From: Xestospongia muta
Taxonomy: Eukaryota > Porifera > Demospongiae > Haplosclerida > Petrosiidae
DNA: 64,000 bases
Reading direction: 5' to 3'
Assembly: GCA_963693285.1 (NCBI GenBank)
Contig: OY848917.1
Coordinates: 13,206,192-13,270,191, forward strand
Shown here: positions 1,276 through 57,347 of the stretch, one piece after another
Numbering within the stretch: position 1 is the first letter of the stretch
How the letters are laid out: every line of letters begins with the position of its first letter
Notes under the pieces: generated by a model
Told to the model about the DNA's origin: nothing
Database searches by the model: none
What the model saw: the letters and a program-made list of their open reading frames with translations, nothing else
Translations under genes and position numbers: made by a program

Positions 1276-2645
1276 TTATTTTTTAACCCAGCTTAGACCA
1301 GTCAAGTGTACACGATCTTCTGGAGGTACTTTTATTAAAGCACTCTCTGTAGTGTTAAGTACTACACCAACAGCAGTCATGAGATTCTCAGCATTAACTG
1401 TCAACAAACTAGTAGCTTCTGCATCTCCTTCTAAGTCTGGAAAATTGAGGAATTAAACAAGGTGTATAAGGTACATTGTAATACTTTATGTAAGACACAT
1501 ATATGTACATGTGTAGTATAAACTTGCTGAAGAAAGGGTTAATATCATGCAAAAACAACATTGCCACAGTACTACAACATGGGCAACAGCTTTTAATCGT
1601 GGGAGTACCCACTGTGTGGAACATAGTACTTTAGTTACTCTTTAAGATACAATGTATCAAATAAGTCATCATATAGTTATTTTGACATTTGTACAATAAG
1701 TTATATAACATGATGACTATATGAATTTATGTACTTACAATTTTAGACCAACTGTAATTATTTTAAACCTTACAAAACTATGTGTTACTATCAATTACTT
1801 TTGTTATTCTCTTAATCTTATTATTAATTAAAGGGAAAAATAATGTCTCGGTTAAATAAGTGTATTTCTGTTTTCTGAGTTTTATCAATGGTTGACTACT
1901 AATACTCCTCATAAAGTTAATGGCTTACCATATTTTCCTGAATGCACACCAACATTAATTTTGAGTTGTGTGGCATAAGTTGGAATATTATCAAGGACCT
2001 GTGACAGAATCTGTAAAGGAATGTATTAAATGGAATTAAAGAGAAGTTTTCAAATGACCAAAGTCAGATATGAATAAATATTACAGTTTCAATCAATTCA
2101 TATAAGAAGTGTTAACTAATTGTAATCTTATTACACACACATTAAAAGGTACTCTATGTATGAACGTTTTTTTAATCAAACTCTGTAACTCACATTTTTG
2201 AGTTGTATGTCTGTACAGAGTTCAACAACTTGTGTAGCTATTTTAACAACCTCTTTACTGTCTTTGACAATAATATTAGCTGTTTGGATAAAATCTTCTA
2301 TAGAATGAACATCACCTTCTTCATCTCTATAAAAGAAAGGTAATCATAATTATTATCAAACTGAAAGTAATACATTAGTACAATACTCAGGGTATAGTAC
2401 ACTTTCAGTGCTAAATTACTGACTATTTAGAACTACAGCAGGTATATTTGTATTTGTGATATTTAGTTCAATGAACATTTTATAAAGTACGTACGTATTG
2501 GAGTATACATTTCACTCAATAATACTTACTGGGCAAACTTTGACATTTCCATCATCAGTCTGGCCATACGTTTAGCAACTACAATCAAATCATTATCTTT
2601 TTCCTCCCATTGTTTAGTTTGTTTATGAAGACAATGAGCAGCAAA
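1276..2645 (-). CDS. Alpha-catenin/vinculin-like C-terminal exons
   Basis: Four exons (2530-2645, 2194-2326, 1929-2010, 1276-1436) with matching phases encode about 163 residues ending at TAA. Visible landmarks are QWEEKDNDLIVVAKRM, ARLMMEMSKFA, IEDFIQTANIIVKDS and a final NLMTAVGVV...LSWVKK. These line up in order with the helical C-terminal part of alpha-catenins (a W..NDIIVLAKQM..MMEM helix, then a terminal NLMNAVV...SW.MK motif; family knowledge from memory). In catenins this region binds F-actin, so an actin or helical-bundle partner is likely (inference). Fusion of this part behind ankyrin/ZU5/Death modules is not a standard ankyrin layout. Confidence 0.8.
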
Positions 2646-5700: not shown

Positions 5701-8700
5701 GTGGATAATTTTGAAGGGAGAAAATATTAATGAATTTAATATATGCTAGAGTTTGAAGAAATTAAATTGGTGAATGGTGTCTTCTACCTACTACCACATC
5801 CCTAATTAAAGTATTTGAGGATAAAAGTTTGGCAATTGAAATATATTTCATGAAATTTGTCAATATTTTCTACCTCCAAAGTTACTAAGTATATGGTACT
5901 TCAACATTTTCTTAAATTATATTATATCATTAATTTACACAATAAACTACATCCTCTAGTATATAAACATAACACTATACTATGTAGTACATACATCAAT
6001 ATTGATACATAGGCACAATGACTGCGTTACATATTAATGTTTTGCCATTCTGGGTGTGATAGCTAGATTTTGAATATTATAAATGCGTCATGAGGTAAGT
6101 TGATCCTATTAATGTTTGCATTACTCTATAAAACTAACTCCTTGCATAATGTGGATGTCTAATATTGTTGTCACAAAATAATGACAGGCCAGTTTTTACA
6201 TCTTAGTGAGGTCTGATGATGTTTTTACTTATTATTATTCATTAAAATCATTTCAATTATGCAATGAATAATGGATAAAAATGGTGCCCATGCAGGCTGT
6301 AAAATAATGATTTTCATGTTCATGTAACCATAATACTATCTGGCAAAAGAAAAAGTTCAGTACTAAAATTGAAAATGCAAAAAGTGACATCATCATGTTT
6401 GTTAAGCAGTTTTCATTTTACCAATTAGGATTTGTTTATTTGGATCAAATATTTCTTAAATTTGTCAACAGAGCTCAATCAAATGTGAACAATGTTATGA
6501 AATCATTCCTTTGAAAGAGTAATATGAATCTGAAAGACAAATCCTTGTGACTTATTTATCTAACGAGATTGGAAAATTATGACAACCACTAGCAAAAGCC
6601 AAAATTTAAAATCAGAACTAACATTAAGAATGCAAAAAAGTAATGTCATCATATATGTAAGTAAGAAGGTCTTTATTTCATCAATTAAATTGAGCCCCAC
6701 CGTATGTTTAGTGCATGATTTTAGTGTTATAAACCATGAAGGCGTGGTTTACTGTAATCATACTTGTTTATTATTTATATATTAACAATAAATTATGCCT
6801 AAACAAGTTAACAAACAATTATTCACTGAATATATATAATTATACATATGTATTATACACAAATAAATTAGCTCTGAGTGTTAATGATAAAGAGAAATTT
6901 AAAAATGTTGTTTCACATCTTGACAATTCACCATTATATTTGTGTAATTATTTTTTCTAATTTAATTAAAAATAGTTCCGTTGTGATAATCATTCATTTT
7001 CCATATTTTTTAAGACAGCTACATTTCATCTTCAGTTATATAGGGTTTGTTATATAACATATGTACATGAACACTTACTTTGTTAACAATGTCTAGATTG
7101 GCTCCTTTCTGTGCTAAAATCAAAACAATATCCCTGTGTCTCCTCTTTGCTGCTAATATCACTGGAGTAGATCCCACCTAAATATATTATATTAGCCACA
7201 TTAAAGTGAACTAAAGAATATATCATAACATTTGTACATTATATATACTAGTAGTGTTGTATACATGTGTGTATTACATGAGTGCACTAGTAACATAATA
7301 AACATAGACAATATTACAAAGTATAAGTCAAAGCATCAATACAAATAACACTCTAAAGTGCACAAATATACATAGACATTACATCATAATTGACATATTA
7401 TTGCACAATTATCAACATGACATTATAAATATAAATCTGACACTTTACAGTAGTCTGTGATGATATTAAAATTGCTTGTTTCTTATTAGCATAGAGGAAG
7501 AATAGACCTTTTTACAAAGACAATTTACCCATGCCATTTTAGAAAAGGCTATGAACAAACACTTATTTATCTTTCTCACAAAAGTAATTTCAATAGATAG
7601 CTTTTTTAACAGAAAGATAAATTATGTATACAAGTATTATCAATGCTACAGTTTCTCAAACAAGCACAAAATGTTCTTTAAGTCTCTACACTATGTTAAC
7701 AACATCACAGTACAAGTATAGCATATACTCTCAATTCCCCACAATATAAATAATTTAACAAAATAAATTTATACACAGACTTACTTTAATTAAATTAACA
7801 ATCATTATACAAGATAAACAATCACAACATTATAGATTAACAAAGGAAAAGGATCTAAAGAAACTGTCAATTGACCATGTGACTGTCACTGCCACACACA
7901 TTGTGGTTAATTAGTATCATTTGTATAAAGTAAAGCTTTGATTATAAATCTTTAGACAATTCTGATTAAAGTAGTCTTCTCAATAATTAGAAGTAATAGT
8001 ACTCATAACATTTGCTACAATTGATGACACATAGAGACAAGAAGTAATCACATCACCATAAATATGGGAACAAAATATAATAAAGAAAACAAAATAACAC
8101 CATTGTATACACTAAACTAAAAGTTATATTACATTATATATCACTTATATATGGGAACAAAATATAAGAAAGAAAACAAAATAACACCATTGTATACACT
8201 AAACTTAGAAGTTATATTACATTATATAACATTTACTCCCTAAGATATTGTAAATGACACATAAAGGCAAGAAGTAATCACATCACCATAAATATGGGAA
8301 TAAATATATAAGAAAGAAACAAAATGACACCATTTATACACTAAACTTAGAAGTTATATTACATTATATAACATTTACAATCTATGATATTGTAAATGAC
8401 ACATAGAGACAAGAAGTAATCACATCACCATAAATATGGGAACAAAATATAATAAAGAAAACAAAATAACACCATTGTATACACTAAACTAAAAGTTATA
8501 TTACATTATATAACACTTATATATGGGAACAAAATATAAGAAAGAAAACAAAATAACACCATTGTATACACTAAACTTAGAAGTTATATTACATTATATA
8601 ACACTTACTCCCTAAGATATTGTAAATGACACATAAAGGCAAGAAGTAATCACATCACCATAAATATGGGAATAAATATATAAGAAAGAAACAAAATAAC

Positions 8701-11700
8701 ACCATTGAATACACTAAACTTAGAAGTTTTAATACATTATATAACACTTATACCCTATGATGTTGTAAATGACACATAGAGACAAAAAGTAATCACATCA
8801 TCATAAATATGGGAACAAAAGATAAGAAAGAAAACAAAATAACACCATTGTATACACTAAACTTAGAAGTTATATTACATTATATAACACTTACAGTCTA
8901 TGATATTGTAAATGACACATAGAGACAAGAAGTAATCACATCACCATAAATATGGGAACAAAATATAATAAAGAAAACAAAATAACACCATTGTATACAT
9001 TAAACTAAAAGTTATATTACATTATATAACACTTATATATGGGAACAAAATATAAGAAAGAAAACAAAATGACACCATTGTATGCACTAAACGAGTAGAA
9101 GTTTATTACATTATATAACACTTACTGGCTATGATATTGTAAATGACACATAGAGACAAGAAGTAACCACGTCACCATAAATATGGGAATAAATATATAA
9201 GAAAGAAACAAAATATGACTATTGTATACACTAAACTTAGAAGTTATATTACATTATATAACACTTAGAATCTATGATATTGCAAATGACACATAAAGAC
9301 GACAAGTAATCACATTTTCATATATATGGGAGCAAAATATAAGAACGAAAAACAAAATAACACAATTGTATATACTAAACTTAGAAGTTTCATTACATTA
9401 TATAACACTTTCTCTATATAATATTATAAATGACACATAAAGACAAGAAGTAATGACATCACCATAAATATTGGAGCAAAATTTAAAAATGAAAAAAAAT
9501 AACACCATTGTATACACTAAACTTAGAAGTTATATTATATTATATAACACTTACTGGCTATGATATTGTAAATGACACATAGAGACAAGAAGTAATCACA
9601 TCACCATAAATATGGGAACAAATTAAAAAAAAAAGAAAAAAATAACACCATTGAATACACTAAACTTAGAAGTTATATTACATTATATAACACTTAAAAT
9701 CTATGATATTGCAAATGACACATAAAGACGACAAGAAATCACATTTCCATAAATATGGGAGCAAAGCATAAGAGAGAATACAAAATAACACAATTGTATA
9801 CACTCAACTTAGAAGTTATATTACATTATATAACACTTTCTCTATATAATATTATAAATGACACATAAAGACAAGAAGTAATGACATCACCATAAATATT
9901 GGAGCAAAATTTAAAAATTGAAAAGAATAACACCATTGTATACACTAAAAGTAGAAGTTATATTACATTATATAACACTTACTTCCTATGATATTGCAAA
10001 TGACACATAGAGACAAGAAGTAATCACATCACCAAAAATATGGGAACAAAATATAAGAAAGAAAACAAAATAACACCATTGTATACACTAAACTTAGAAG
10101 TTATATTATATTATATAACACTTACTGGCTATGATATTGTAAATGACACATAGAGACAAGAAGTAATCACATCACCATAAATATGGAAACAAATTTTAAA
10201 AAAGAAAAAAATAACACCATTGAATACACTAAACTTAGAAGTTATATTACATTATATAACACTTAAAATCTATGATATTGCAAATGACACATAAAGACTA
10301 CAAGTAATCATATTTCCATAAATATGGGAGCAAAGCATAAGAGAGAAAACAAAATAACACAATTGTATACACTCAACTTAGAAGTTATATTACATTATAT
10401 AACACTTTCTCTATATAATATTATAAATGACACATAAAGACAAGAAGTAATGACATCACCATAAATATTGGAGCAAAATTTAAAAATTGAAAAGAATAAC
10501 ACCATTGTATACACTAAACGTAGAAGTTATATTACATTATATAACACTTACTTCCTATGATATTGCAAATGACACATAGAGACAAGAAGTAATCACATCA
10601 CCATAAATATGAGAACAAAATATAAGAAAGAAAACAATATAACACCATTGTATACATTAAATGTAGAAGTTGTATTACATTATATAACACTTACTGGCTA
10701 TGATATTGTAAATGACACATAGAGACAATAAGTAATCACATCACCATAAATATGAGAACAAAATATAAGAAAGAAAACAATATAACACCATTGTATACAT
10801 TAAATGTAGAAGTTATATTACATTATATAACACTTACTTCCTATGATATTGGTAATGACACATAGAGACAAGAAGTAATCATATCACCAAAAATATGGGA
10901 ACAAAATATAAGAACGAAAACAAAATAACACCATTGTATACACTAAACTTAGAAGTTATATTACATTATATAACACTTATATATGGGAACAAAATATAAG
11001 AAAGAAAACAAAAAAAACACCATTGTATACACTAAACGAGTAGAAGTTACAGTACATTATATAAAACTTACTGGCTATGATATTGTAAATGACACATAGA
11101 GACAAGAAGTAATCACATCACCATAAATATGGGAATAAATATATAAGAAAAAAACAAAATATGACCATTGTATACACTAAACCTAGAAGTTATATTACAT
11201 TATATAACACTTACTTCCTATGATATTGGCAATGACACACAGAGACAAGAAGTAATCACATCACCATAAACATGGAAACAAAATATGAGAACGAAAACAA
11301 AATAACACCATTTATACACTAAACTTAGAAGTTATATTACATTATATAACACTTACCAGCTATGATATTGGTAATGACACATAGAGACAAGAAGTAATCA
11401 CATCACCATAAATATGGGAACAAAATATAAGAACGAAAACAAAATAACACCATTTATACACTAAACTTAGAAGTTATATTACATTATATAACACTTACAG
11501 TCTATGATATTGTAAATGACACATAGAGACAAGAAGTAATCACATCACCATAAATATGGGAATAAATATATAAGAAAGAAACAAAATATGACCATTGTAT
11601 ACACTAAATGTAGAAGTTATATTACATTATATAACACTTACCATCTATGATATTGGTAATGACACATAGAGACAAGAAGTAATCACATCACCATAAACAT

Positions 11701-14700
11701 GGAAAGAAAATATAATAAAGAAAACAAAATAACACCATTGTATACACTAAACAAGTAGAAGTTATATTACATTATATAACACTTACTCTCTATGACATTG
11801 TAAATGACACATAAAGACAAGAAGTAATTACATCACCATAAACATGGAAACAAAATATAAGAACGAAAACAAAATAACACCATTGTATACACTAAAATTA
11901 GAAGTTATATTACATTATATAACACTTACTTGCTATGAAGTTGTAAATGACACATAGAAACAAGAAGTAATCACATCATCATAAACATGGAAACAAAATA
12001 TAAGAACGAAAACAAAATAACACCATTTATACACTAAACTTAGAAGTTATATTACATTATATAACACTTACAATCTATGATATTGGTAATGACACATAGA
12101 GACAAGAAGTAATCACATCACCATAAACATGGAAACAAAATATAAGAACGAAAACAAAATAACACCATTGTATACAGTAAATGTACAAGTTATATTACAT
12201 TATATAACACTTACTGGCTATGATATTGGTAATGACACATAGAGACAAGAAGTAATCACATCACCATAAACATGGAAACAAAATATAAGAACGAAAACAA
12301 AATAACACCATTGTATACACTAAAATTAGAAGTTATAGTACATTATATAACACTTACTGGCTATGATATTGGTAATGACACATAGAGACAAGAAGTAATC
12401 ACATCACCATAAGCATGGAAACAAAATATAAGATTGAAAACAAAATAACACCATTTATACACTAAACTTAGAAGTTATATTACATTATATAACACTTACA
12501 GTCTATGATATTGTAAATGACACATAGAGACAAGAAGTAATCACATCACCATAAATATGGGAATAAATATATAAGAAAGAAACAAAATATGACCATTGTA
12601 TACACTAAACAAGTAGAAGTTATATTACATTATATAACACTTACTGGCTATGATATTGTAAATGACACAAAGAGACAAGAAGTAATCACATCACCATAAA
12701 TATGGGAATAAATATATAAGAAAGAAACAAAATATGACCATTGTATACACTAAACGTAGAAGTTATATTACATTATATAACACTTACCATCTATGATATT
12801 GGTAATGACACATAGAGACAAGAAGTAATCACATCACCATAAACATGGAAACAAAATATAAGAACGAAAACAAAATAACAACATTGTATACACTAAAATT
12901 AGAAGTTATAGTACATTATATAACATTTACTCCCTATGATATTGTAAATGACACATAGAGACAAGAAGTAATCACATCACCATAAACATGGAAACAAAAT
13001 ATAAGAACGAAAACAAAATAACACCATTGTATACACTAAAATTAGAAGTTATATTACATTATATAACACTTACTCGCTATGAAGTTGTAAATGACACATA
13101 GAGACAAGAAGTAATCACATCATCATAAACATGGAAACAAAATATAAGAACGAAAACAAAATAACACCATTTATACACTAAACTTAGAAGTTATATTACA
13201 TTATATAACACTTACAATCTATGATATTGGTAATGACACATAGAGACAAGAAGTAATCACATCACCATAAACATGGAAACAAAATATAAGAACGAAAACA
13301 AAATAACACCATTGTATACAGTAAATGTACAAGTTATATTACATTAAGAAAGAAACAAAATATGACCATTGTATACACTAAACAAGTAGAAGTTATATTA
13401 CATTATATAACACTTACTGGCTATGATATTGTAAATGACACATAGAGACAAGAAGTAATCACGTCACCATAAATATGGGAATTAATATATAAGAAAGAAA
13501 CAAAATATGACCATTGTATACACTAAACGTAGAAGTTTAATTACATTATATAACATTTACTCCCTATGATATTGTAAATGACACATAGAGACAAGAAGTA
13601 ATCACATCACCATAAATATGGGAACAAAATTTAAAAAAGAAAAAAATAACACCATTGAATACACTAAACAAGTAGAAGTTATATTACATTATATAACACT
13701 TACTCTCTATGATATTGTAAATGACACATAGAGACAAGAAGTAATCACATCACCATAAATATGGGAATAAATATATAAGAAAGAAACAAAATATGACCAT
13801 TGTATACACTAAACGTAGAAGTTATATTACATTATATAACACTTACCATCTATGATATTGGTAATGACACATAGAGACAAGAAGTAATCACATCACCATA
13901 AACATGGAAACAAAATATAAGAACGAAAACAAAATAACAACATTGTATACACTAAAATTAGAAGTTATAGTACATTATATAACATTTACTCCCTATGATA
14001 TTGTAAATGACACATAGAGACAAGAAGTAATCACATCACCATAAACATGGAAACAAAATATAAGATCAAAAACAAAGCAACACCATTGAATACACTAAAC
14101 TTAGAAGTTATATTACATTATATAACACTTACAATCTATGATATTGGTAATGACACATAGAGACAAGAAGTAATCACATCACCATAAACATGGAAACAAA
14201 ATATAAGAACGAAAACAAAATAACACCATTGTATACACTAAAATTAGAAGTTATATTACATTATATAACACTTACTCGCTATGAAGTTGTAAATGACACA
14301 TAGAGACAAGAAGTAATCACATCATCATAAACATGGAAACAAAATATAAGAACGAAAACAAAATAACACCATTTATACACTAAACTTAGAAGTTATATTA
14401 CATTATATAACACTTACAATCTATGATATTGGTAATGACACATAGAGACAAGAAGTAATCACATCACCATAAACATGGAAACAAAATATAAGAACGAAAA
14501 CAAAATAACACCATTGTATACAGTAAATGTACAAGTTATATTACATTAAGAAAGAAACAAAATATGACCATTGTATACACTAAACAAGTAGAAGTTATAT
14601 TACATTATATAACACTTACTGGCTATGATATTGTAAATGACACATAGAGACAAGAAGTAATCACGTCACCATAAATATGGGAATAGATATATATAAGAAA

Positions 14701-17700
14701 GAAACAAAATATGACCATTGTATACACTAAACGTAGAAGTTATATTACATTATATAACATTTACTCCCTATGATATTGTAAATGACACATAGAGACAAGA
14801 AGTAATCACATCACCATAAATATGGGAACAAAATTTAAAAAAGAAAAAAATAACACCATTGAATACACTAAACTTAGAAGTTTTATTACATTATATAACA
14901 CTTACTGACTATGATGTTGTAAATGACACATAAAGACGAAAAGTAATCACATTTCCATAAATATAGGAGCAAAATATAATAAAGAAAACAAAATAACACC
15001 ATTGTATACACTAAACAAGTAGAAGTTATATTACATTATATAACACTTACTCTCTATGATATTGTAAATGACACATAGAGACAAGAAGTAATCACATCAC
15101 CATAAATATGGGAATAAATATATAAGAAAGAAACAAAATATGACCATTGTATACACTAAACGTAGAAGTTATATTACATTATATAACACTTACCATCTAT
15201 GATATTGGTAATGACACATAGAGACAAGAAGTAATCACATCACCATAAACATGGAAACAAAATATAAGAACGAAAACAAAATAACAACATTGTATACACT
15301 AAAATTAGAAGTTATAGTACATTATATAACATTTACTCCCTATGATATTGTAAATGACACATAGAGACAAGAAGTAATCACATCACCATAAACATGGAAA
15401 CAAAATATAAGATCAAAAACAAAATAACACCATTGAATACACTAAACTTAGAAGTTATATTACATTATATAACACTTACTGACTATGATGTTGTAAATGA
15501 CACATAAAGACGAAAAGTAATCACATTTCCATAAATATAGGAGCAAAATATAATAAAGAAAACAAAATAACACCATTGTATACACTAAACTTGGAAATTA
15601 TATTACATTATATAACACTTTCTCTATATTATGTTGTAAATGACACATAGAGACAAGAAGTAATAACAACAACACCATAAATATGGGAGCAAAATTTAAA
15701 AATGAAAAAAAATAAGACCATTGTATAACTAAACTTAAAAGTTATATTACATTATATAACACTTACTTCCTATGATATTGTAAATGACACATAGAGACAA
15801 GAAGTAATCACATCACCATAAATATGGGAACAAAATATAAGAACGAAAACAAAATAACACCATTTATACACTAAACTTAGAAGTTATATTACATTATATA
15901 ACACTTACAGTCTATGATATTGTAAATGACACATAGAGACAAGAAGTAATCACATCACCATAAATATGGGAACAAAATATAATAAAGAAAACAAAATAAC
16001 ACCATTGTATACACTAAACAAGTAGAAGTTATATTACATTATATAACACTTACTGGCTATGATATTGTAAATGACACATAGAGACAAGAAGTAACCACGT
16101 CACCATAAATATGGGAATATATATATAAGAAAGAAACAAAATATGACCATTTATACACTAAACTTAGAAGTTATATTACATTATATAACACTTACAGACT
16201 ATGATATTGTAAATGACACATAGAGACAAGAAGTAATCACATCACCATAAACATGGAAACAAAATATAAGAACGAAAACAAAATAACACCATTGTATACA
16301 CTAAATGTAGAAGTTATATTACATTATATAACACTTACCAGCTATGATATTGGTAATGATACATAGAGACAAGAAGTAATCACATCACCATAAACATGGA
16401 AACAAAATATAAGAACGAAAACAAAATAACACCATTGTATAGACTAAAATTAGAAGTTATAGTACATTATATAACACTTACATTCTATGATATTGTAAAT
16501 GACACATAGAGACAAGAAGTAACCACGTCACCATAAACATGGGAACAAAATATAAGAACGAAAACAAAATAACACCATTTATACACTAAACTTAGAAGTT
16601 ATATTACATTATATAACACTTACAGTCTATGATATTGTAAATGACACATAGAGACAAGAAGTAATCACATCACCATAAATATGGGAACAAAATATAAGAA
16701 CGAAAACAAAATAACACCATTTATACACTAAACTTAGAAGTTATATTACATTATATAACACTTACAGTCTATGATATTGTAAATGACACATAGAGACAAG
16801 AAGTAATCACATCACCATAAATATGGGAACAAAATATAATAAAGAAAACAAAATAACACCATTGTATACACTAAACAAGTAGAAGTTATATTACATTATA
16901 TAACACTTACTGGCTATGATATTGTAAATGACACATAGAGACAAGAAGTAACCACGTCACCATAAATATGGGAATAAATATATAAGAAAGAAACAAAATA
17001 TGACCATTTATACACTAAACTTAGAAGTTATATTACATTATATAACACTTACAGTCTATGATATTGTAAATGACACATAGAGACAAGAAGTAATCACATC
17101 ACCATAAACATGGAAACAAAATATAAGAACGAAAACAAAATAACACCATTGTATACACTAAATGTAGAAGTTATATTACATTATATAACACTTACCAGCT
17201 ATGATATTGGTAATGATACATAGAGACAAGAAGTAATCACATCACCATAAACATGGAAACAAAATATAAGAACGAAAACAAAATAACACCATTGTATAGA
17301 CTAAAATTAGAAGTTATAGTACATTATATAACACTTACATCCTATGATATTGTAAATGACACATAGAGACAAGAAGTAACCACGTCACCATAAATATGGG
17401 AACAAAATATAAGAACGAAAACAAAATAACACCATTTATACACTAAACTTAGAAGTTATATTACATTATATAACACTTACAGTCTATGATATTGTAAATG
17501 ACACATAGAGACAAGAAGTAATCACATCACCATAAATATGGGAACAAAATATAATAAAGAAAACAAAATAACACCATTGTATACACTAAACAAGTAGAAG
17601 TTATATTACATTATATAACACTTACTGGCTATGATATTGTAAATGACACATAGAGACAAGAAGTAACCACGTCACCATAAATATGGGAATAAATATATAA

Positions 17701-20700
17701 GAAAGAAACAAAATATGACCATTTATACACTAAACTTAGAAGTTATATTACATTATATAACACTTACAGTCTATGATATTGTAAATGACACATAGAGACA
17801 AGAAGTAATCACATCACCATAAACATGGAAACAAAATATAAGAACGAAAACAAAATAACACCATTGTATACACTAAATGTAGAAGTTATATTACATTATA
17901 TAACACTTACCAGCTATGATATTGGTAATGATACATAGAGACAAGAAGTAATCACATCACCATAAACATGGAAACAAAATATAAGAACGAAAACAAAATA
18001 ACACCATTGTATAGACTAAAATTAGAAGTTATAGTACATTATATAACACTTACATCCTATGATATTGTAAATGACACATAGAGACAAGAAGTAACCACGT
18101 CACCATAAATATGGGAACAAAATATAAGAACGAAAACNNNNNNNNNNNNNNNNNNNNNNNNNNNNNNNNNNNNNNNNNNNNNNNNNNNNNNNNNNNNNNN
18201 NNNNNNNNNNNNNNNNNNNNNNNNNNNNNNNNNNNNNNNNNNNNNNNNNNNNNNNNNNNNNNNNNNNNNNNNNNNNNNNNNNNNNNNNNNNNNNNNNNNN
18301 NNNNNNNNNNNNNNNNNNNNNNNNNNNNNNNNNNNNNAAGAAACTGTCAATTGACCATGTGACTGTCACTGCCACACACATTGTAGTTAATTGGTATCAT
18401 TTGTATAAAGTAAAGCTTTGATTATAAGTCTTTAGACAATTCTGATTAACGTAGGCTTCTCAATAATTAGAAGTAATAGTACTCATAACATTTGCTACAA
18501 TTGATGACGCATAGAGACAACAAGTAATCACATAACCATAAATATAAGAACAAAATATAAGAAAGAAAACAAAAAAACATCATTGTATACACTAAACTTA
18601 GAAGTTATATTACATTTTATAACACTTATCACCTATAATATTGTCAATGACACATAGAGACAAGAAGTAATCACATCATCATAAATATGGGAACAAAATA
18701 TAAGAACGAAAACAAAACAACATCATTTATACACTAAACTTAGAAGTTATATTACATTATATAACACTTACTTGCTATGGTGTTGTAAATGACACATAGA
18801 GACAAGAAGTAATCACATCATCATAAATATGGGAACAAAATATAAGAAAGAAAACAAAATAACACCATTTATACACTAAACTTAGAAGTTATATTAAATT
18901 ATATAACACTTACCATCTATGATATTGTAAATGACAAATGGAGACAAGAAGTAATCACATCACCATAAACATGGAACAAAATATAAGAACGAAAACAAAA
19001 CAACATCATTTATACACTAAACTTAGAAGTTATATTACATTATATGACACTTACTTGCTATGATGTTGTAAATGACACATAGAGACAAGAAGTAATCACA
19101 TCATCATAAATATGGGAACAAAATATAAGAACGAAAACAAAATAACACCATTTATACATTAAACTTAGAAGTTATATTAAATTATATAACACTTACTCTC
19201 TATGATATTGGTAATGACACATAAAGACGACAAGTAATCACATTTCCATAAATATGTGAACAAAATATAAGAAAGAAAACAAAATAACACCATTGTATAC
19301 ACTAAATGTAGAACTTATAGTACATTATATAACACTTACTTCCTATGATATTGTAAATGACGCATAGAGACAAGAAGTAATCACATCACCATAAATATGG
19401 GAACAAAATATAAGAACGAAAACAAAACAACATCATTTATACACTAAACTTAGAAGTTATATTACATTATATAACACTTACTTGCTATGATGTTGTAAAT
19501 GACACATAGAGACAAGAAGTAATCACATCACCATAAATATGGGAACAAAATATAAGAACGAAAACAAAACAACATCATTTATACACTAAACTTAGAAGTT
19601 ATATTACATTATATAACACTTACTTGCTATGATGTTGTAAATGACACATAGAGACAAGAAGTAATCACATCATCATAAATATGGGAACAAAATATAAGAA
19701 CAAAAACAAAATAACACCATTTATACATTAAACTTAGAAGTTATATTAAATTATATAACACTTACTCTCTATGATATTGGTAATGACACATAGAGACAAG
19801 AAGTAATCACATCACCATAAATATGGGAACAAAATATAAGAACGAAAACAAAACAACATCATTTATACACTAAACTTAGAAGTTATATTACATTATATAA
19901 CACTTACTTGCTATGATGTTGTAAATGACACATAGAGACAAGAAGTAATCACATCATCATAAATATGGGAACAAAATATAAGAACGAAAACAAAATAACA
20001 CCATTTATACATTAAACTTAGAAGTTATATTAAATTATATAACACTTACTCTCTATGATATTGGTAATGACACATAAAGACGACAAGAAGTAATCACATC
20101 ACCATAAATATGGAAACAAAATATAAGAACAAAAACAAAATAACACCATTGTATACACTAAACTTAGAAGTTATATTACATTATATAACACTTACAGTCT
20201 ATGATATTGTAAATGACACATAGAGACAAGAAGTAATCACATCACCATAAACATGGGAACAAATATAAGAACGAAAACAAAATAACACCATTTATACACT
20301 AAACTTAGAAGTTATATAACATTATATAACACTTACTTCCTATGATATTGTAAATGACACATAGAGACAAGAAGTAATCACATCACCATAAATATGGGAA
20401 CAAAATATAAGAACGAAAACAAAATAAGACCATTTATACACTAAACTTAGAAGTTATAGTACATTATATAACACTTACCAGCTATGATATTGTAAATGAC
20501 ATATAGAGACAAGAAGTAATCACATCACCATAAATATGGAAACAAAATATAAGAACAAAAACAAAATAACACCATTGTATACACTAAACTTAGAAGTTAT
20601 ATTACATTATATAACACTTACAGTCTATGATATTGTAAATGACACATAGAGACAAGAAGTAATCACATCACCATGAACATGGAAACAAAATATAAGAACG

Positions 20701-29700: not shown

Positions 29701-32700
29701 AAGTTATAGTACATTATATAACACTTACTTCCTATGATATTGTAAATGACACATAGAGACGAGAAGTAATCACATCATCATAAATATGGGAACAAAATTA
29801 AAAAAGAAAACAAAATAACACCATTTATACACTAAACTTAGAAGTTATATTACATTATATAACACTTACAGTCTATAATATTGTAAATGGCACATAAAGA
29901 CGACAAGTAATCACATTTCCATAAGTATGTGAACAAAATATAAGAACGAAAACAAAATAACAGCATTGTATACACTAAACTTAGAAGTTATATTACATTA
30001 TATAACACTTACATGCTATGATGTTGTAAATGACACATAAAGACGAAAAGTAATCACATTTCCATAAATATAGGAGCAAAATATAATAAAGAAAACAAAA
30101 TAACACCATTGTGTACACTAAACTTATATTACATTATATAACACTTTCTCTATATTATGTTGTAAATGACACATAGAGACAAGAAGTAATCACATCACCA
30201 TAAACATGGAAACAAAATATAAGAATGAAAACAAAATAACACCATTTATACACTAAACTTAGAAGTTATAGTACATTATATAACGCTTACTTGCTATGAT
30301 GTTGTAAATGACACATAGAGATGAGAAGTAATCACATCATCATAAATATGTGAACAAAATATAAGAAAGAAAACAAAATAACATCATTGTATACAGTAAA
30401 TGTAGAAGTTATAGTACATTATATAACACTTACTTCCTATGATATTGTAAATGGCACATAAAGACGACAAGTAATCACATTTCCATAAGTATGTGAACAA
30501 AATATAAGAAAGAAAACAAAATAACACCATTGTATACACTAAACTTAGAAGTTATATTACATTATATAACACTTACAGACTATAATATTGTAAATGACAC
30601 ATAGAGATGAGAAGTAATCACATCACCATTAATGTGGGAGCAAAATATAAGAAAGAAAACAAAATAATTCCATTGTATACACTAAATGTAGAAGTTATAT
30701 TACACTATATAACACTTACCCACTATGATATTGTAAATGGCACATAAAAACGAGAAGTAATCAGATCATCATAAATATCGGAATAAAATATAAATAAGAA
30801 AACAAAATAACACCATTGTATGCACTAAACTTAGAAGTTATGTTACATTGTATAACACTTACTTCCTACCGTATTGTAAATGACACATAGAGACGACAAG
30901 TAATCACATCACCATAAATATGGGAGCAAAATATAAGAAAGAAAACAAAATAACACCATTGTATACATTAAACGTAAAGGTTATATTACATTATATAATA
31001 CTTACTAGCTATGATATTGTAAATGGCACATAAAGACGACAAGTAATCACATTTCCATAAGTATGTGAACAAAATATAAGAAAGAAAACAAAATAACACC
31101 ATTGTATACACTAAACTTAGAAGTTATATTACATTATATAACACTTACTTGCTATGATGTTGTAAATGACACATAGAGACAAGAAGTAATCACATCACCA
31201 TTAATATGGGAGCAAAATATAAGAATGAAAACAAAATAACATAATTGAATACACTGAACTTAGAAGTTATATTACATTATATAACACTTACTTTCTATGA
31301 TATTGTAAATGACACATAGAGATGAGAAGTAATCAGATCATCATAAATATGGGAACAAAATTAAAAAACATAACAAAATAACACCATTGTATACACTAAA
31401 TTTAGAAGTTATATTACATTATATAACACTTATTCTCTATGATATTGTAAATGACACATAGAGACGAGAAGTAATCAGATCATCATAAATATGGGAATAA
31501 AATATAAATAAGAAAACAAAATAACACCATTGTATGCACTAAATTTAGAAGTTATAGTACATTATGTAACACTTACAGACTATGATATTGTAAATGACAC
31601 ATAGAGACAAGAAGTAATCACATCATCATAAATATGGGAACAAAATTAAAAAAGAAAACAAAATAACACCATTTATACACTAAACTTAGAAGTTATATTA
31701 CATTATATAACACTTACCAGCTATAATATTGTAAATGACACATAAAGACGACAAGTAATCACATTTCCATAAATATGTGAACAAAATATAAGAAAGAAAA
31801 CAAAATAATAACATTGTATACACTAAATGTAGAAGTTATATTACATTATATAACATTTACAGACTATGATATTGTAAATGACACATAGAGACGAGAAGTA
31901 ATCACATCATCATAAATATGGGAACAAAATTAAAAAAGAAAACAAAATAACACCATTTATACACTAAACTTAGAAGTTATGTTACATTGTATAACACTTA
32001 CTTCCTACCGTATTGTAAATGACACATAGAGACGACAAGTAATCACATCACCATAAATATGGGAGCAAAATATAAGAAAGAAAACAAAATAACACCATTG
32101 TATACATTAAACGTAAAGGTTATATTACATTATATAATACTTACTAGCTATGATATTGTAAATGGCACATAAAGACGACAAGTAATCACATTTCCATAAG
32201 TATGTGAACAAAATATAAGAAAGAAAACAAAATAACACCATTGTATACACTAAACCTAGAAGTTATATTACATTATATAACACTTACAAACTATAATATT
32301 GTAAATGACACATAGAGATGAGAAGTTATCACATCACCATTAATATGGGAGCAAAATATAAGAATGAAAACAAAATAACATAATTGAATACACTGAACTT
32401 AGAAGTTATATTACATTATATAACACTTACTTTCTATGATATTGTAAATGACACATAGAGATGAGAAGTAATCAGATCATCATAAATATGGGAACAAAAT
32501 TAAAAAAGATAACAAAATAACACCATTGTATACACTAAATTTAGAAGTTATATTACATTATATAACACTTATTCTCTATGATATTGTAAATGACACATAG
32601 AGACGAGAAGTAATCAGATCATCATAAATATGGGAATAAAATATAAATAAGAAAACAAAATAACACCATTGTATGCACTAAATTTAGAAGTTATAGTACA

Positions 32701-35700
32701 TTATGTAACACTTACAGACTATGATATTGTAAATGACACATAGAGACAAGAAGTAATCACATCATCATAAATATGGGAACAAAATTAAAAAAGAAAACAA
32801 AATAACACCATTTATACACTAAACTTAGAAGTTATATTACATTATATAACACTTACAGTCTATAATATTGTAAATGACACATAAAGACGACAAGTAATCA
32901 CATTTCCATAAATATGTGAACAAAATATAAGAAAGAAAACAAAATAATAACATTGTATACACTAAATGTAGAAGTTATATTACATTATATAACATTTACA
33001 GACTATGATATTGTAAATGACACATAGAGACGAGAAGTAATCACATCATCATAAATATGGGAACAAAATTAAAAAAGAAAACAAAATAACACCATTTATA
33101 CACTAAACTTAGAAGTTATATTACATTATATAACACTTACTATCTATGATATTGTAAATGACACATAGAGACAAGAAGTAATCACATCACCATAAACATG
33201 GAATCAAAATATAAAAATGAAAACAAAATGACACCATTGTATACACCAAACTTAGAAGTTATATAACATTATATAACACTTACTTCCTATGATATTGTAA
33301 ATGACACATAGAGACAAGAAGTAATTACATCACCATAAATATGGGAACAAAATATAAGAATGAAAACAAAATAACACCATTTAAACACTAAACTTAGAAG
33401 TTATATTACATTATATAACACTTACTTCCTATGATATTGTAAATGGCACATAAAGACGAAAAGTAATCACATTTCCATAAATATAGGAGCAAAATATAAT
33501 AAAGAAAACAAAATAACACCATTTATACACTAAACTTAGAAGTTATATTACATTATATAACACTTACCATCTATGATATTGGTAATGACACATAGAGACA
33601 AGAAGTAATCACATCATCATAAACATGGAAACAAAATATAAGAATGAAAACAAAATAACACCATTTATACACTAAACTTAGAAGTTATAGTACATTATAT
33701 AACGCTTACTTGCTATGATGTTGTAAATGACACATAGAGACAAGAAGTAATCACATCACCATAAATATGGGAACAAAATATAAGAACGAAAACAAAATAA
33801 CAGCATTGTATACACTAAACTTAGAAGTTATATTACATTATATAACACTTTCTCTATATTATGTTGTAAATGACACATAAAGACGAAAAGTAATCACATT
33901 TCCATAAATATAGGAGCAAAATATAATAAAGAAAACGAAATAACACCAATTATACACTAAACTTAGAAGTTATATTACATTATATAACACTTACCATCTA
34001 TGATATTGGTAATGACACATAGAGACAAGAAGTAATCACATCATCATAAACATGGAAACAAAATATAAGAATGAAAACAAAATAACACCATTTATACACT
34101 AAACTTAGAAGTTATAGTACATTATATAACGCTTACTTGCTATGATGTTGTAAATGACACATAGAGACAAGAAGTAATCACATCACCATAAATATGGGAA
34201 CAAAATATAAGAACGAAAACAAAATAACAGCATTGTATACACTAAACTTAGAAGTTATATTACATTATATAACACTTTCTCTATATTATGTTGTAAATGA
34301 CACATAAAGACGAAAAGTAATCACATTTCCATAAATATAGGAGCAAAATATAATAAAGAAAACAAAATAACACCAATTATACACTAAACTTAGAAGTTAT
34401 ATTACATTATATAACACTTACCAGCTATGATATTGGTAATGACACATAGAGACAAGAAGTAATCACATCATCATAAACATGGAAACAAAATATAAGAACG
34501 AAAACAAAATAACACCATTTATACACTAAACTTAGAAGTTATATTACATTATATAACGCTTACTTGCTATGATGTTGTAAATGACACATAGAGACAAGAA
34601 GTAATCACATCACCATAAATATGGGAACAAAATATAAGAACGAAAACAAAATAACAGCATTGTATACACTAAACTTAGAAGTTATATTACATTATATAAC
34701 ACTTACATGCTATGATGTTGTAAATGACACATAGAGACAAGAAGTAATCACATCACCATAAATATGGAAACAAAATATAAGAACGAAAACAAAATAACAG
34801 CATTATATACACTAAACTTAGAAGTTATATTACATTATATAACACTTACATGCTATGATGTTGTAAATGACACATAAAGACGAAAAGTAATCACATTTCC
34901 ATAAATATAGGAGCAAAATATAATAAAGAAAACAAAATAACAGCATTGTATACACTAAATTTAGAAGTTATATTACATTATATAACACTTACGATCTATG
35001 ATATTGTAAATGACACATAGAGACGAGAAGTAATCAGATCATCATAAATATCGGAATAAAATATAAATAAGAAAACAAAATAACACCATTGTATGCACTA
35101 AATTTAGAAGTTATATTACATTATATAACACTTACTTGCTATGATGTTGTAAATGACACATAGAGACAAGAAGTAATCACATCATCATAAATATGTGAAC
35201 AAAATATAAGAAAGAAAACAAAATAACACCATTGTATACACTAAACTTAGAAGTTATAGTACATTATATAACACTTACTTCCTATGATATTGTAAATGAC
35301 ACATAGAGACGAGAAGTAATCACATCATCATAAATATGGGAACAAAATTAAAAAAGAAAACAAAATAACACCATTTATACACTAAACTTAGAAGTTATAT
35401 TACATTATATAACACTTACAGTCTATAATATTGTAAATGGCACATAAAGACGACAAGTAATCACATTTCCATAAGTATGTGAACAAAATATAAGAACGAA
35501 AACAAAATAACAGCATTGTATACACTAAACTTAGAAGTTATATTACATTATATAACACTTACATGCTATGATGTTGTAAATGACACATAAAGACGAAAAG
35601 TAATCACATTTCCATAAATATAGGAGCAAAATATAATAAAGAAAACAAAATAACACCATTGTGTACACTAAACTTATATTACATTATATAACACTTTCTC

Positions 35701-38700
35701 TATATTATGTTGTAAATGACACATAGAGACAAGAAGTAATCACATCACCATAAACATGGAAACAAAATATAAGAATGAAAACAAAATAACACCATTTATA
35801 CACTAAACTTAGAAGTTATAGTACATTATATAACGCTTACTTGCTATGATGTTGTAAATGACACATAGAGATGAGAAGTAATCACATCATCATAAATATG
35901 TGAACAAAATATAAGAAAGAAAACAAAATAACATCATTGTATACAGTAAATGTAGAAGTTATAGTACATTATATAACACTTACTTCCTATGATATTGTAA
36001 ATGGCACATAAAGACGACAAGTAATCACATTTCCATAAGTATGTGAACAAAATATAAGAAAGAAAACAAAATAACACCATTGTATACACTAAACTTAGAA
36101 GTTATATTACATTATATAACACTTACAGACTATAATATTGTAAATGACACATAGAGATGAGAAGTAATCACATCACCATTAATGTGGGAGCAAAATATAA
36201 GAAAGAAAACAAAATAATTCCATTGTATACACTAAATGTAGAAGTTATATTACACTATATAACACTTACCCACTATGATATTGTAAATGGCACATAAAAA
36301 CGAGAAGTAATCAGATCATCATAAATATCGGAATAAAATATAAATAAGAAAACAAAATAACACCATTGTATGCACTAAACTTAGAAGTTATGTTACATTG
36401 TATAACACTTACTTCCTACCGTATTGTAAATGACACATAGAGACGACAAGTAATCACATCACCATAAATATGGGAGCAAAATATAAGAAAGAAAACAAAA
36501 TAACACCATTGTATACATTAAACGTAAAGGTTATATTACATTATATAATACTTACTAGCTATGATATTGTAAATGGCACATAAAGACGACAAGTAATCAC
36601 ATTTCCATAAGTATGTGAACAAAATATAAGAAAGAAAACAAAATAACACCATTGTATACACTAAACTTAGAAGTTATATTACATTATATAACACTTACTT
36701 GCTATGATGTTGTAAATGACACATAGAGACAAGAAGTAATCACATCACCATTAATATGGGAGCAAAATATAAGAATGAAAACAAAATAACATAATTGAAT
36801 ACACTGAACTTAGAAGTTATATTACATTATATAACACTTACTTTCTATGATATTGTAAATGACACATAGAGATGAGAAGTAATCAGATCATCATAAATAT
36901 GGGAACAAAATTAAAAAACATAACAAAATAACACCATTGTATACACTAAATTTAGAAGTTATATTACATTATATAACACTTATTCTCTATGATATTGTAA
37001 ATGACACATAGAGACGAGAAGTAATCAGATCATCATAAATATGGGAATAAAATATAAATAAGAAAACAAAATAACACCATTGTATGCACTAAATTTAGAA
37101 GTTATAGTACATTATGTAACACTTACAGACTATGATATTGTAAATGACACATAGAGACAAGAAGTAATCACATCATCATAAATATGGGAACAAAATTAAA
37201 AAAGAAAACAAAATAACACCATTTATACACTAAACTTAGAAGTTATATTACATTATATAACACTTACCAGCTATAATATTGTAAATGACACATAAAGACG
37301 ACAAGTAATCACATTTCCATAAATATGTGAACAAAATATAAGAAAGAAAACAAAATAATAACATTGTATACACTAAATGTAGAAGTTATATTACATTATA
37401 TAACATTTACAGACTATGATATTGTAAATGACACATAGAGACGAGAAGTAATCACATCATCATAAATATGGGAACAAAATTAAAAAAGAAAACAAAATAA
37501 CACCATTTATACACTAAACTTAGAAGTTATGTTACATTGTATAACACTTACTTCCTACCGTATTGTAAATGACACATAGAGACGACAAGTAATCACATCA
37601 CCATAAATATGGGAGCAAAATATAAGAAAGAAAACAAAATAACACCATTGTATACATTAAACGTAAAGGTTATATTACATTATATAATACTTACTAGCTA
37701 TGATATTGTAAATGGCACATAAAGACGACAAGTAATCACATTTCCATAAGTATGTGAACAAAATATAAGAAAGAAAACAAAATAACACCATTGTATACAC
37801 TAAACCTAGAAGTTATATTACATTATATAACACTTACAAACTATAATATTGTAAATGACACATAGAGATGAGAAGTTATCACATCACCATTAATATGGGA
37901 GCAAAATATAAGAATGAAAACAAAATAACATAATTGAATACACTGAACTTAGAAGTTATATTACATTATATAACACTTACTTTCTATGATATTGTAAATG
38001 ACACATAGAGATGAGAAGTAATCAGATCATCATAAATATGGGAACAAAATTAAAAAAGATAACAAAATAACACCATTGTATACACTAAATTTAGAAGTTA
38101 TATTACATTATATAACACTTACAGACTATGATATTGTAAATGACACATAGAGACGAGAAGTAATCAGATCATCATAAATATGGGAATAAAATATAAATAA
38201 GAAAACAAAATAACACCATTGTATGCACTAAATTTAGAAGTTATAGTACATTATGTAACACTTACAGACTATGATATTGTAAATGACACATAGAGACAAG
38301 AAGTAATCACATCATCATAAATATGGGAACAAAATTAAAAAAGAAAACAAAATAACACCATTTATACACTAAACTTAGAAGTTATATTACATTATATAAC
38401 ACTTACAGTCTATAATATTGTAAATGACACATAAAGACGACAAGTAATCACATTTCCATAAATATGTGAACAAAATATAAGAAAGAAAACAAAATAATAA
38501 CATTGTATACACTAAATGTAGAAGTTATATTACATTATATAACATTTACAGCCTATGATATTGTAAATGACACATAGAGACGAGAAGTAATCACATCATC
38601 ATAAATATGGGAACAAAATTAAAAAAGAAAACAAAATAACACCATTTATACACTAAACTTAGAAGTTATATTACATTATATAACACTTACTATCTATGAT

Positions 38701-41700
38701 ATTGTAAATGACACATAGAGACAAGAAGTAATCACATCACCATAAACATGGAATCAAAATATAAAAATGAAAACAAAATGACACCATTGTATACACCAAA
38801 CTTAGAAGTTATATAACATTATATAACACTTACTTCCTATGATATTGTAAATGACACATAGAGACAAGAAGTAATTACATCACCATAAATATGGGAACAA
38901 AATATAAGAATGAAAACAAAATAACACCATTTAAACACTAAACTTAGAAGTTATATTACATTATATAACACTTACTTCCTATGATATTGTAAATGACACA
39001 TAGAGACAAGAAGTAATCATATCACCATAAACATAGAAACAAAATATAAGAACGAAAACAAAATAACACCATTTATACACTAAACTTTGAAGTTATATTA
39101 CATTATATAACACTTACAAGCTATGATATTGTAAATGACACATAGAGACAAGAAGTAATCACATTACCATAAACATGGGAACAAAATATAAGAACAAAAA
39201 CAAAATAACACCATTGTATACACTAAACTTAGAAGTTATATTACATTATATAACACTTACAAGCTATGATATTGTAAATGACACATAGAGGCAAGAAGTA
39301 ATCACATCGCCATAAACATGGAAACAAAATATAAGAACGGAAATAAAATAACACCATTGTATACACTAAACTTAGAAGTTATATTACATTATGTAACACT
39401 TACAATCTACAATGTAGTAAATGACACATAAAGACGACAAGTAATCACATTTCCATAAATATGGGAGCAAAATATAATAAAGAAAACAAAATAACACCAT
39501 TGTATACACTAAACTTAGAAGTTATATTATATTATATAACACTTACTCTCTATGATATTGTAAATGACACATAATGACGATAAGTAATCACATCATCATA
39601 AATATGAGAACAAAATATAAAAAAGAAAACAAAATAACACCATTGTATACACTAAAGTTAGAAGTTATATTACATTATGTAATACTTACCAGCTATGATA
39701 TTGGTAATGACACATAGAGATGACAAGTAATCACATCATCATAAATATGGGAACAAAATATAGAAAGGAAGACAAAATAACACCATTTTATACACTAAAC
39801 TTAGAAATTATATTACATTATATAATACTTACTTCCTATGATATTGTAAATGACACATAGAGACGAGAAGTAATCACATCATCATAAACATGGGAACAAA
39901 ATATAAAAAAGAAAAAAAATGACACCATTGTATGCACTAAACATAGAAGTTATATTACATTATATAATACTTATAATCTATGATATTGTAAATGACACAT
40001 AAACGCAACATGTTATCACATCATCATAAATATGCGAACAAAATGTGATCTGATTTGTGAAAAGAGATTACTACTATTATAACACTTACTGTAATTGCAT
40101 AAGTAATTTGGTAATAAAATTCTTACTAAGTTTTACATTTCATGTTATCTATTTTTTTTAAAAACTGAGACATCATTTAGTAAACATCTATTGAAAATGT
40201 ACGGTTGTGTACACAACAACTGTATATTTTTGAGATGTTTTAACAGAAGTGGTCCCTTTTCGCAAATCAGTTCACAAATATAAAAAAAAACATAATATGA
40301 CAAGGATCTAATTTTTAGACTATTTCCTCATTAACCTTTCTGGCTGTAGTGTGAGTTAAGATTACTGTATTTCTCGTTGTGTAAGTGTATTTATGTGTTT
40401 GTTACCAGGTAATAATTATAGCAGGCTTGTAAGTAATGTAGCAGTAACAGTACTTGTAAAATTTACTACAATGAATGCTACTATTTAGGATTTCGTTTCC
40501 AATAATGATTCACTTCTTGATAAATTCTCATACAATAGTAGCATGACAATTACAAAGTAATACCACTCAGTGTAATTCATCTACTATTGTGTCAATGGTT
40601 CTGCACATTTTGCTTTTCATTGTTAATGTAGTACAATTATAAAGTCTATGCTATGTCTTCTCTAATAGTTACTATCTATTCATACAACTTAAAGGTTAAA
40701 GTAAAACACACTTATTCTCATGATTTGAATTACCTTAGTAACAACATTGATATTAGCTCCATGAGTGAGTAATAGCTCAACAATATCTGAGTGCCCTTCA
40801 TAACTTGCATAATGAAGAGCTGACCATCCATCCTATTATAAAAACAAAGTATCAACTATAAAATTAAACTACTAATACACTAAACTATTACTAAAACATA
40901 CACAAACCCTATAATAGTGTTTGGAGTTATACAAAGTCAGAAAGTACTGATTGTTTAGGTGATAATATAGTTAATGTAGACTTAAAGTTAACATAAATGT
41001 GGAAACAAAGATTTGATGGGATTGTTTTTATTCAAAGAAACATAATCAGATAGGCTGCATCATTTAAAATCAAATATTGCTTGTACAATAAATGAAATCT
41101 TACTTTATTTAGAATATTTATGTCGGCTCCTCTTGAGAGAGCATTTTGCACTCCAGACAAATCCCCTTTCTTAACACATTCAATTAGACTGTCATTCTAT
41201 AAAAACAAAAACACTATGTGTCAAGTACATAATGAATGATCTGACTTCAAAAACTAAATAACATTTGAAAAAATTACTAGCAATTGGCTTGATCACTTTA
41301 CTTCAGTGATATTTAAAATATAAAAATTACTTAATTATTTGGTGATAAAAAGTTAGTGCATACAATCTTAAGAGAACATGTTTGATACTGTGCCATTCTC
41401 TGACTTATATATTTTATGTTAAAAACAAACAGGCTAACATTATTACATCATTGAAATCTTATTGTGATAACTTTACTGATATTCTACATAAATGATATAT
41501 GATTATCATGTATGTACTTTACATATTGCAGTCACAGAATTCAAAAATCCCATAAATCCAGTACTGTCATACCTTAATTATTTTAAAGGAGGTGGTACCA
41601 TGTTGTCAATAATATTCATAGTAAAATTTGTTTTATATTTAACTCTATATCTTTTATACAACATTATATCAATGGTATTTGACTTTGTTGTTTGTTTCGA

Positions 41701-57250: not shown

Positions 57251-57347
57251 AAAACACTTTTTTTAATAAGGGACCCTTCTCAACTCAAACATAGTATGAT
57301 TATAAGAATTCCTTAAAATTTATCTCAATTTTATAATCCTTTCTTAG

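What the first reader, a model, noticed from the sequence alone, without database searches (positions are those of the whole stretch)
7986..40040. Array of about 220 cassettes that each present one variable codon between a splice acceptor and a splice donor
Seen directly: on the host gene's sense strand each 142-145 bp unit reads ATATCATAG|NNN|GTAAGTG, with NNN hypervariable and the flanks conserved. The host intron is phase 0, so every triplet would be an in-frame single codon. Cassette spacing of about 139 nt is in the range of this gene's other introns, while a 33.5-kb intron is not. Inference: each unit is a 3-nt microexon, and transcripts carry a chosen or complete series of single-codon exons, building a variable peptide. 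I know of no described gene with tandem arrays of single-codon exons. Gene finders would miss it because 3-nt exons have no coding signal and look like a satellite.
Basis: partly seen in the sequence, partly recalled or inferred. Interest (0 to 1): 0.97.

Follow-up and report, generated by a model that had tools for sequence, protein, structure and literature searches.

The report
Arrays of one-codon exons
In a sponge genome, very likely the giant barrel sponge, 218 tandem repeats inside one ankyrin-repeat gene each hold one variable three-letter codon, most of them between intact splice signals, and thousands of similar units lie elsewhere in the genome, many in related genes, so each is predicted to be a one-amino-acid exon that would add variable residues to the protein.

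Summary
The window holds 218 units with a hypervariable triplet between an acceptor (ATATCATAG) and a donor (GTAAGTG); of 215 junctions located by the intron body alone, 192 read AG-NNN-GTRA. The genome, very likely Xestospongia muta, has 3,295 matches to the junction motif with up to two mismatches. In the fetched loci, 25 array starts follow ankyrin exon A and 26 array ends precede ankyrin exon B, all in sense orientation, both exons phase 0. Whole arrays hold 2 to 218 units. Among 2,274 exact junctions none is a stop codon, while TGG (147), TTA (12) and TAT (6) occur. A second class of unit holds a nearly invariant GAT. A plain satellite explains this poorly. I favour single-codon exons spliced in frame, mostly in series, into the hairpin between repeats A and B. 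No RNA evidence was available; one public RNA-seq run could decide it.

The parts
8237..39977 (-). array of 218 units, each holding one variable triplet (predicted 3-nt exon) between ATATCATAG and GTAAGTGTTATATAATG, separated by ~139-nt intron-like bodies
   Evidence: junction check by intron body, (192 of 215 read AG-NNN-GTRA)
39978..40089 (-). degraded first unit of the array, beginning at a GTAAGTG
   Evidence: read
7986..8236 (-). degraded last units, one with acceptor-like AATTGTAG and no donor
   Evidence: read
18138..18337 (.). 200-N assembly gap inside the array
40734..40832 (-). exon A: ankyrin repeat DGWSALHY...NVVTK, 99 nt, phase 0
7079..7177 (-). exon B: ankyrin repeat VGSTPVIL...IVNK, 99 nt, phase 0, donor GTAAGTGTT
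41104..41196 (-). upstream ankyrin exon N
5355..5453 (-). ankyrin exon C
5128..5311 (-). ankyrin exon D and linker
4474..5033 (-). ZU5-domain exon (PF00791)
1276..2645 (-). C-terminal exons of the host gene (four predicted exons), Vinculin family (PF01044, E 7.3e-39)

Best explanation
The array is likely a run of single-codon exons that would be spliced in frame, mostly in series, between two ankyrin-repeat exons, adding a variable string of residues to the hairpin between the two repeats. Shown by the sequence: AG-NNN-GTAAGT units in sense orientation, 3-nt spacing, phase-0 host exons, the same arrays at the same place in many members of a large gene family, hypervariable codons beside more homogeneous introns, no stop codons, and a sister unit class with a near-invariant GAT. 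Inferred: each short intron is removed by intron definition, each removal leaving exon A longer by one codon and rebuilding a GTAAGT donor for the next step. Also inferred: exchange among units homogenises the introns while long-term diversifying selection keeps the codons different, and the proteins (ankyrin - ZU5 - vinculin tail) are intracellular recognition or adhesion scaffolds.
For: Architecture: over 26 sources, 25 A-to-array and 26 array-to-B transitions; all 66 exon matches lie on the array's strand. The best 150 A-like and 150 B-like exons genome-wide all passed E 0.001; more candidates went unscored. Spacing: 643 of 643 strict junctions are 3 nt; of 613 junctions located by the intron body, 546 read AG-NNN-GTRA, none with a stop. 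Stops: 0 TAA/TGA and 0 TAG in 2,274 exact junctions, against 147 TGG, 12 TTA and 6 TAT; 0 in the window's 218. Shuffling columns within 29 arrays, distinct triplets only (191): 0 seen, 16.7 +/- 2.9 expected, none of 4,000 shuffles at 0. GAT class: codon positions 1 and 2 invariant in 93 of 93 distinct units, position 3 changed in 4; intron mean 9.9%. Variable class: 60, 66 and 50% non-consensus against 16.8% in introns. In the window, units 98.5% alike in flanks differ at 0.49 per triplet base. Four whole arrays hold only two detected units, GAT + one codon (two in L029, one each in L018 and L033), where constitutive inclusion is the simplest reading. Exon B donors read GTAAGTG, like the unit donor, in 17 of 17.
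Against: No RNA or protein evidence: protein searches gave genomic read-through ORFs, nothing, or generic ankyrin proteins. TRR after AG reads GTRR, a donor-like word, so splice interference could remove some stops. TTA and TAT, donor-like sense triplets, are rare (12 and 6 of 2,274) but present, so interference alone does not fit well. Other triplets are rare too (8 GCN, all GCG). Distinct triplets pooled over all arrays (41) give no significant stop deficit: 1.9 expected, 10% of shuffles at 0. A-B joined directly aligns to known ankyrin structures mostly without gaps in the alignments shown, so a product lacking the codons would also be normal. In the window the splice words are not clearly more conserved than the rest of the unit. 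Some arrays show little triplet variety among close units (L024; L023 at the closest distance). Two AAT units in L018 with donor GTAAAT resemble the GAT class but were outside its count. Serial inclusion of all intact window units implies a loop of roughly 190 residues. Units outside A-B exist (one in L023, one in L035).
Confidence: 0.63

Rival explanations
1. Choose-one exons: the triplets are single-codon exons, but each transcript takes only one or a few of them, as in mutually exclusive exon clusters, giving a one- or two-residue variable position.
For: A-B joined directly is already a normal ankyrin pair, so a one- or two-residue insert is easily tolerated. Exon A donors differ from GTAAGT in 16 of 17 listed (GTAATT, GTTATT, GTAACT, GTAAAT), as might be expected of a regulated site. 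Array sizes vary from 2 to 218.
Against: If each unit were used in under 1% of transcripts, selection against a stop in any one unit would be weak, yet none is seen. Two-unit modules leave little to choose. No selector element was sought.
Confidence: 0.2
2. Intronic satellite: the repeat amplified inside one intron and copied with the gene family; the splice words are a relic of its founder and are ignored, A and B joining directly.
For: Tandem, homogenised and segmentally duplicated like a satellite. An isolated dead unit lies outside any gene module found. 67 of 613 junctions lack AG-NNN-GTRA.
Against: Does not explain codons far more variable than their introns, a near-invariant GAT class, constant 3-nt spacing across families of unit whose bodies differ, or absence of stops while TGG, TTA and TAT occur.
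Confidence: 0.1
3. Stepwise removal sites: the units mainly serve recursive splicing of a very long intron, and the triplet is a tolerated by-product.
For: AG next to GTAAGT resembles ratchet points (recalled); the A-B interval in the window is 33,556 nt.
Against: Classical ratchet points keep no bases between AG and GT (recalled), and a 3-nt remainder would enter the mRNA anyway. Two-unit arrays occur in A-B intervals of only about 1.3-2.5 kb (positions). Hypervariability is unexplained.
Confidence: 0.05
4. Introner-like mobile introns that inserted side by side, the triplet being a target-site or coupling sequence.
For: Intron-like ends (GTAAGT...TAG), thousands of copies.
Against: Copies with ankyrin flanks in hand lie almost only between A and B of one family. 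Neighbouring triplets are no more often identical than chance: 16 of 217 against 15.6 shuffled, unlike target-site duplicates. Random insertion would not spare stops.
Confidence: 0.02

Closest known systems
Microexons (3-27 nt; neuronal programmes in animals; recalled, and search listings)
   Same: 3-nt exons flanked by normal splice sites occur singly in known genes (recalled)
   Different: here hundreds stand in tandem, with many different codons, in a sponge ankyrin gene family
Dscam-type tandem exon clusters (recalled)
   Same: tandem arrays of short, sequence-variable exons between two constant exons of one gene
   Different: Dscam exons are domain-sized and one is chosen; here each is one codon, and choice is not implied by the two-unit modules
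Fungal HET/NLR repeats with high internal conservation (recalled; PMC12222747 and PMC12258605 seen only as the start of the abstract in a listing)
   Same: repeats kept alike by concerted evolution while a few codons stay hypervariable in recognition proteins (recalled)
   Different: there the codons lie inside protein-coding repeats; here the conserved part is intron and only the codon would be exon
Recursive splice sites / ratchet points (recalled)
   Same: acceptor word directly upstream of a donor word
   Different: ratchet points leave 0 nt; here 3 nt
Designed ankyrin repeat proteins (DARPins; among PDB hits)
   Same: diversity placed in the ankyrin hairpin region (recalled)
   Different: made by design; here natural, and by added residues

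Membership tests
Microexon | exon of at most ~27 nt with its own acceptor and donor words | tested here: met
   546 of 613 junctions located by intron body read AG-NNN-GTRA
Microexon | included in mature mRNA | not testable with these tools
   no RNA reads available; run ERR13669939 is named in PMC12398682
Microexon | reading frame kept | tested here: met
   3 nt in 643 of 643 strict junctions; A and B exons phase 0; about three other spacings among the 67 remaining junctions
Dscam-type mutually exclusive cluster | tandem variable exons between constant exons | tested here: met
   25 A-to-array and 26 array-to-B transitions; 14 arrays whole between A and B
Dscam-type mutually exclusive cluster | one exon per transcript | not testable with these tools
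   needs cDNA; the two-unit GAT+X modules suggest otherwise
Recursive (ratchet) splice site | AG and GT abutting with no exon bases | tested here: not met
   3-nt spacing
Introner | near-identical introns in many unrelated genes | tested here: inconclusive
   fetched copies lie in one gene family or as orphans; 7 of 26 sources showed no A or B exon, and the genome was sampled, not surveyed
Satellite DNA | tandem homogenised repeat | tested here: met
   but triplet variability far exceeds most other columns
Known RNA family | Rfam match | tested here: not met
   0 matches at gathering score in 7 sources, 118 kb

The most novel reading that the evidence does not exclude
A sponge carries a germline library of thousands of one-codon exons, and stochastic stepwise splicing through these arrays assembles near-random peptides in the hairpins of ankyrin-repeat receptors, a splicing-based counterpart of antibody diversity used to tell self or symbiont from non-self.
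Probability: 0.25. Interest if true: 0.99.

Novelty: categorically new. Interest (0 to 1): 0.95.

Why it matters
Exons are thought of as domain- or motif-sized pieces. A protein segment written one codon per exon, over hundreds of exons and thousands genome-wide, would be a new way to encode and diversify a protein, invisible to gene finders and most read aligners. It would give sponges, early-branching animals rich in microbes and able to recognise self, a candidate diversity generator, and would test how small an exon the spliceosome can handle in series.

Tried and rejected
Transcript-derived homologues were sought to read what lies between A and B: three protein searches gave genomic read-through ORFs of the ZU5 exon among generic ankyrin proteins (P0001-P0004, P0006, P0033, P0035), nothing, or generic ankyrin proteins, many of abalone (best 120 of 926 listed). 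A known RNA gene in the unit: none. Copies of one exact pattern in viral or prokaryote contigs: none. Descent of the unit from the B-to-A intron: no blastn match at E 0.001 to 17 such introns, beyond the shared donor and acceptor words. Current hypermutation as the source of codon variety: not supported. Paralog arrays L027 and L028 (main blocks 95.4 and 96.6% alike) share 12 codons in order with 1 change in 36 bases, and of 47 window unit pairs 5,550 bp apart 37 have the same triplet. Linkage between triplet and flanks was low throughout, so conversion and crossing-over could not be told apart. Complete absence of TTA and Ala codons, which I first inferred from the fetched loci: wrong genome-wide, 12 TTA and 8 GCG exist; because this weakens the splice-interference reading of the missing stops I moved the best explanation from 0.60 to 0.63 and the satellite rival from 0.13 to 0.10. 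A death domain (my first guess at 3374-3745): no Pfam hit. A bacterial-type promoter scan was uninformative for an animal gene. A plasmid search with COX1 found nothing and was not needed. Two units seen near exon N of L023: one is the start of exon N itself, one a lone dead unit.

Full report
What was checked. The window is C1:13206192-13270191 of a genome held as 158,027,690 bases in 28 contigs. Its contig lengths (C1 35.35, C2 22.15, C4 10.60, C7 8.28, C10 6.49 Mb; the COX1-bearing contig 18,990 bp) closely match the published Xestospongia muta assembly odXesMuta1.1 (158.52 Mb, 298 scaffolds, chromosomes 35.36, 22.15, 10.61, 8.28, 6.49 Mb, mitochondrion 18.99 kb; PMC12398682: start of abstract, passages, section 7). 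So the organism is very likely the giant barrel sponge, an inference from lengths. The host gene, on the minus strand, encodes ankyrin repeats, a ZU5 domain and a vinculin-family tail; the exon model is mine, without transcripts.

The array. 218 units match the junction motif. To reduce circularity I built a profile from the intron bodies and read the junctions between neighbouring hits: in the window 192 of 215 and in other loci 354 of 398 read AG-NNN-GTRA, with no stop codon among the 546. The remaining 67 mostly have a lost donor or acceptor, or another GT donor such as GTTA or GTAT; about three show a spacing other than 3. The triplet is the most variable block of the unit (1.84, 1.95, 1.52 bits), though one intron column reaches 1.73. 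In the window, pairs of units 98.5% alike in their flanks differ at 0.49 per triplet base, and 252 of the 451 differing pairs (of 721) differ at all three bases. Other arrays follow the same trend to different degrees; L024, mostly TTG, shows little. Blocks 5,550 bp apart are duplicated, so the 218 units give 143 distinct 143-nt windows.

The same thing genome-wide. The motif with up to 2 mismatches occurs 3,295 times, its backward control 0 times; the exact TATAATAG variant occurs 2,274 times. I fetched 25 stretches and mapped ankyrin exons and units in them and the window. Genes are built of repeated modules: exon A (ankyrin), array, exon B (ankyrin), then A again. Transitions over the 26 sources: A-to-array 25, array-to-B 26, B-to-A 24; exceptions one truncated-B-to-array (L017), one lone dead unit before exon N (L023) and one A-to-B with no units (L032). 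All 66 exon matches lie on the array's strand. Seven sources (L014, L016, L020, L024, L025, L027, L028) show no A or B in the stretch held; L016, L027 and L028 contain their whole small arrays, so those lack the usual neighbours within a few kb. A single dead unit lies beyond the window's left end (L035). Genome searches scored only the best 150 of 3,864 and 1,992 candidates for A-like and B-like exons, and all 150 passed in each. The 14 arrays lying whole between an A and a B hold 2, 2, 2, 2, 7, 8, 9, 11, 15, 15, 16, 33, 41 and 218 detected units; more diverged units may be missed.

Two classes of unit. In many loci a unit with donor GTAATTTTG and the codon GAT alternates with a variable unit. 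Over 93 distinct GAT-class units (donor GTAATT required), codon positions 1 and 2 never vary, position 3 varies in 4 (three GAG, one GAC), and intron columns vary 9.9% on average, 6% of them at or below 1%. Two AAT units in L018 with donor GTAAAT fall outside that definition. Variable units (432 distinct) show 60, 66 and 50% non-consensus triplet bases against 16.8% in introns. So the same 3-nt slot is either conserved like a codon or diversified, depending on class.

Stop codons. Genome-wide exact junctions hold 0 TAA or TGA and 0 TAG; the 147 TRR matches are therefore all TGG (one search lists 100, all TGG); TAY gives 6, all TAT; TTA gives 12 on four contigs. Shuffling bases within arrays predicts 42.9 stops in 650 units and 16.7 in 191 distinct array-triplets, against 0; pooled over all arrays the 41 distinct triplets predict only 1.9, which is not significant. 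Every TRR after AG spells GTRR, donor-like with the following GT, so avoidance of a competing donor could contribute. TTA and TAT make donor-like words too and do occur, which favours coding; but both are rare, and so are some other triplets (GCN 8, all GCG). Either cause would imply that the sites are actively spliced.

How it likely works. Bodies of ~139 nt suit intron definition; other host introns in my model are 43, 48, 72, 94, 271 and 1,625 nt. Removing the first intron would add one codon to exon A and leave ...NNN|GTAAGTG, a strong donor, ready for the next step. The insertion point lies between residue 33 of one ankyrin repeat and residue 1 of the next, the hairpin (placement recalled; A-B aligned to ankyrin structures). 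I favour mostly serial inclusion because two-unit modules leave little to choose, and because rare use of each unit could not purge stops from all of them; broken units would be skipped in frame. This is inference; no RNA was available.

How the codons stay different. Flanking columns are close to linkage equilibrium, left against right of the triplet, so exchange among units seems frequent. Paralog arrays L027 and L028 show 1 codon-base change in 36 at 3-5% divergence, and 37 of 47 unit pairs 5,550 bp apart keep their triplet, so the slot is not an obvious mutation hot spot now. Long-term diversifying selection against homogenising exchange fits best; this too is inference.

Novelty. Searches for microexons with tandem arrays, single-codon exons, sponge ankyrin genes, introners, Dscam/recursive splicing and sponge allorecognition (listings only, best-ranked rows) showed no description of such arrays. 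Most subscription-journal papers are outside that library.

Noticed in passing
window 55684-57279 (-) and 58819-59848 (-): Open frames beside the host gene, one with a weak DDE_3 transposase match (below the curated cut-off), probably remnants of mobile elements.
   Followed up: partly
window 52905-53515: Tandem repeat of a 40-bp unit, 15 copies, 95% matches, of different period and consensus from the array.
   Followed up: no
window 60984-61493: Second tandem repeat with period 142 bp, 3.6 copies at 98%, similar period but a different consensus from the main array.
   Followed up: no
window 5461-5484 (-): A decayed unit-like word, ATATCATAG-TGC-GTAATATAAATT, just upstream of ankyrin exon C.
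   Followed up: no
L009 1808-3237: Interrupted open frames that look like a pogo/Tigger-type transposase (recalled resemblance, untested) between exon N and the first B exon of an array gene.
   Followed up: no
L035, sense position 985 (C1:13205488-13205515): Isolated single unit with a dead donor about 0.7 kb beyond the window's left end, outside any A-B module.
   Followed up: yes
L032 sense 6706-7023: An A-B module with no detected single-codon units between the two exons, a natural array-free comparison.
   Followed up: no
L017 sense 5107: A truncated B exon inside an array, suggesting fusion of two modules.
   Followed up: no
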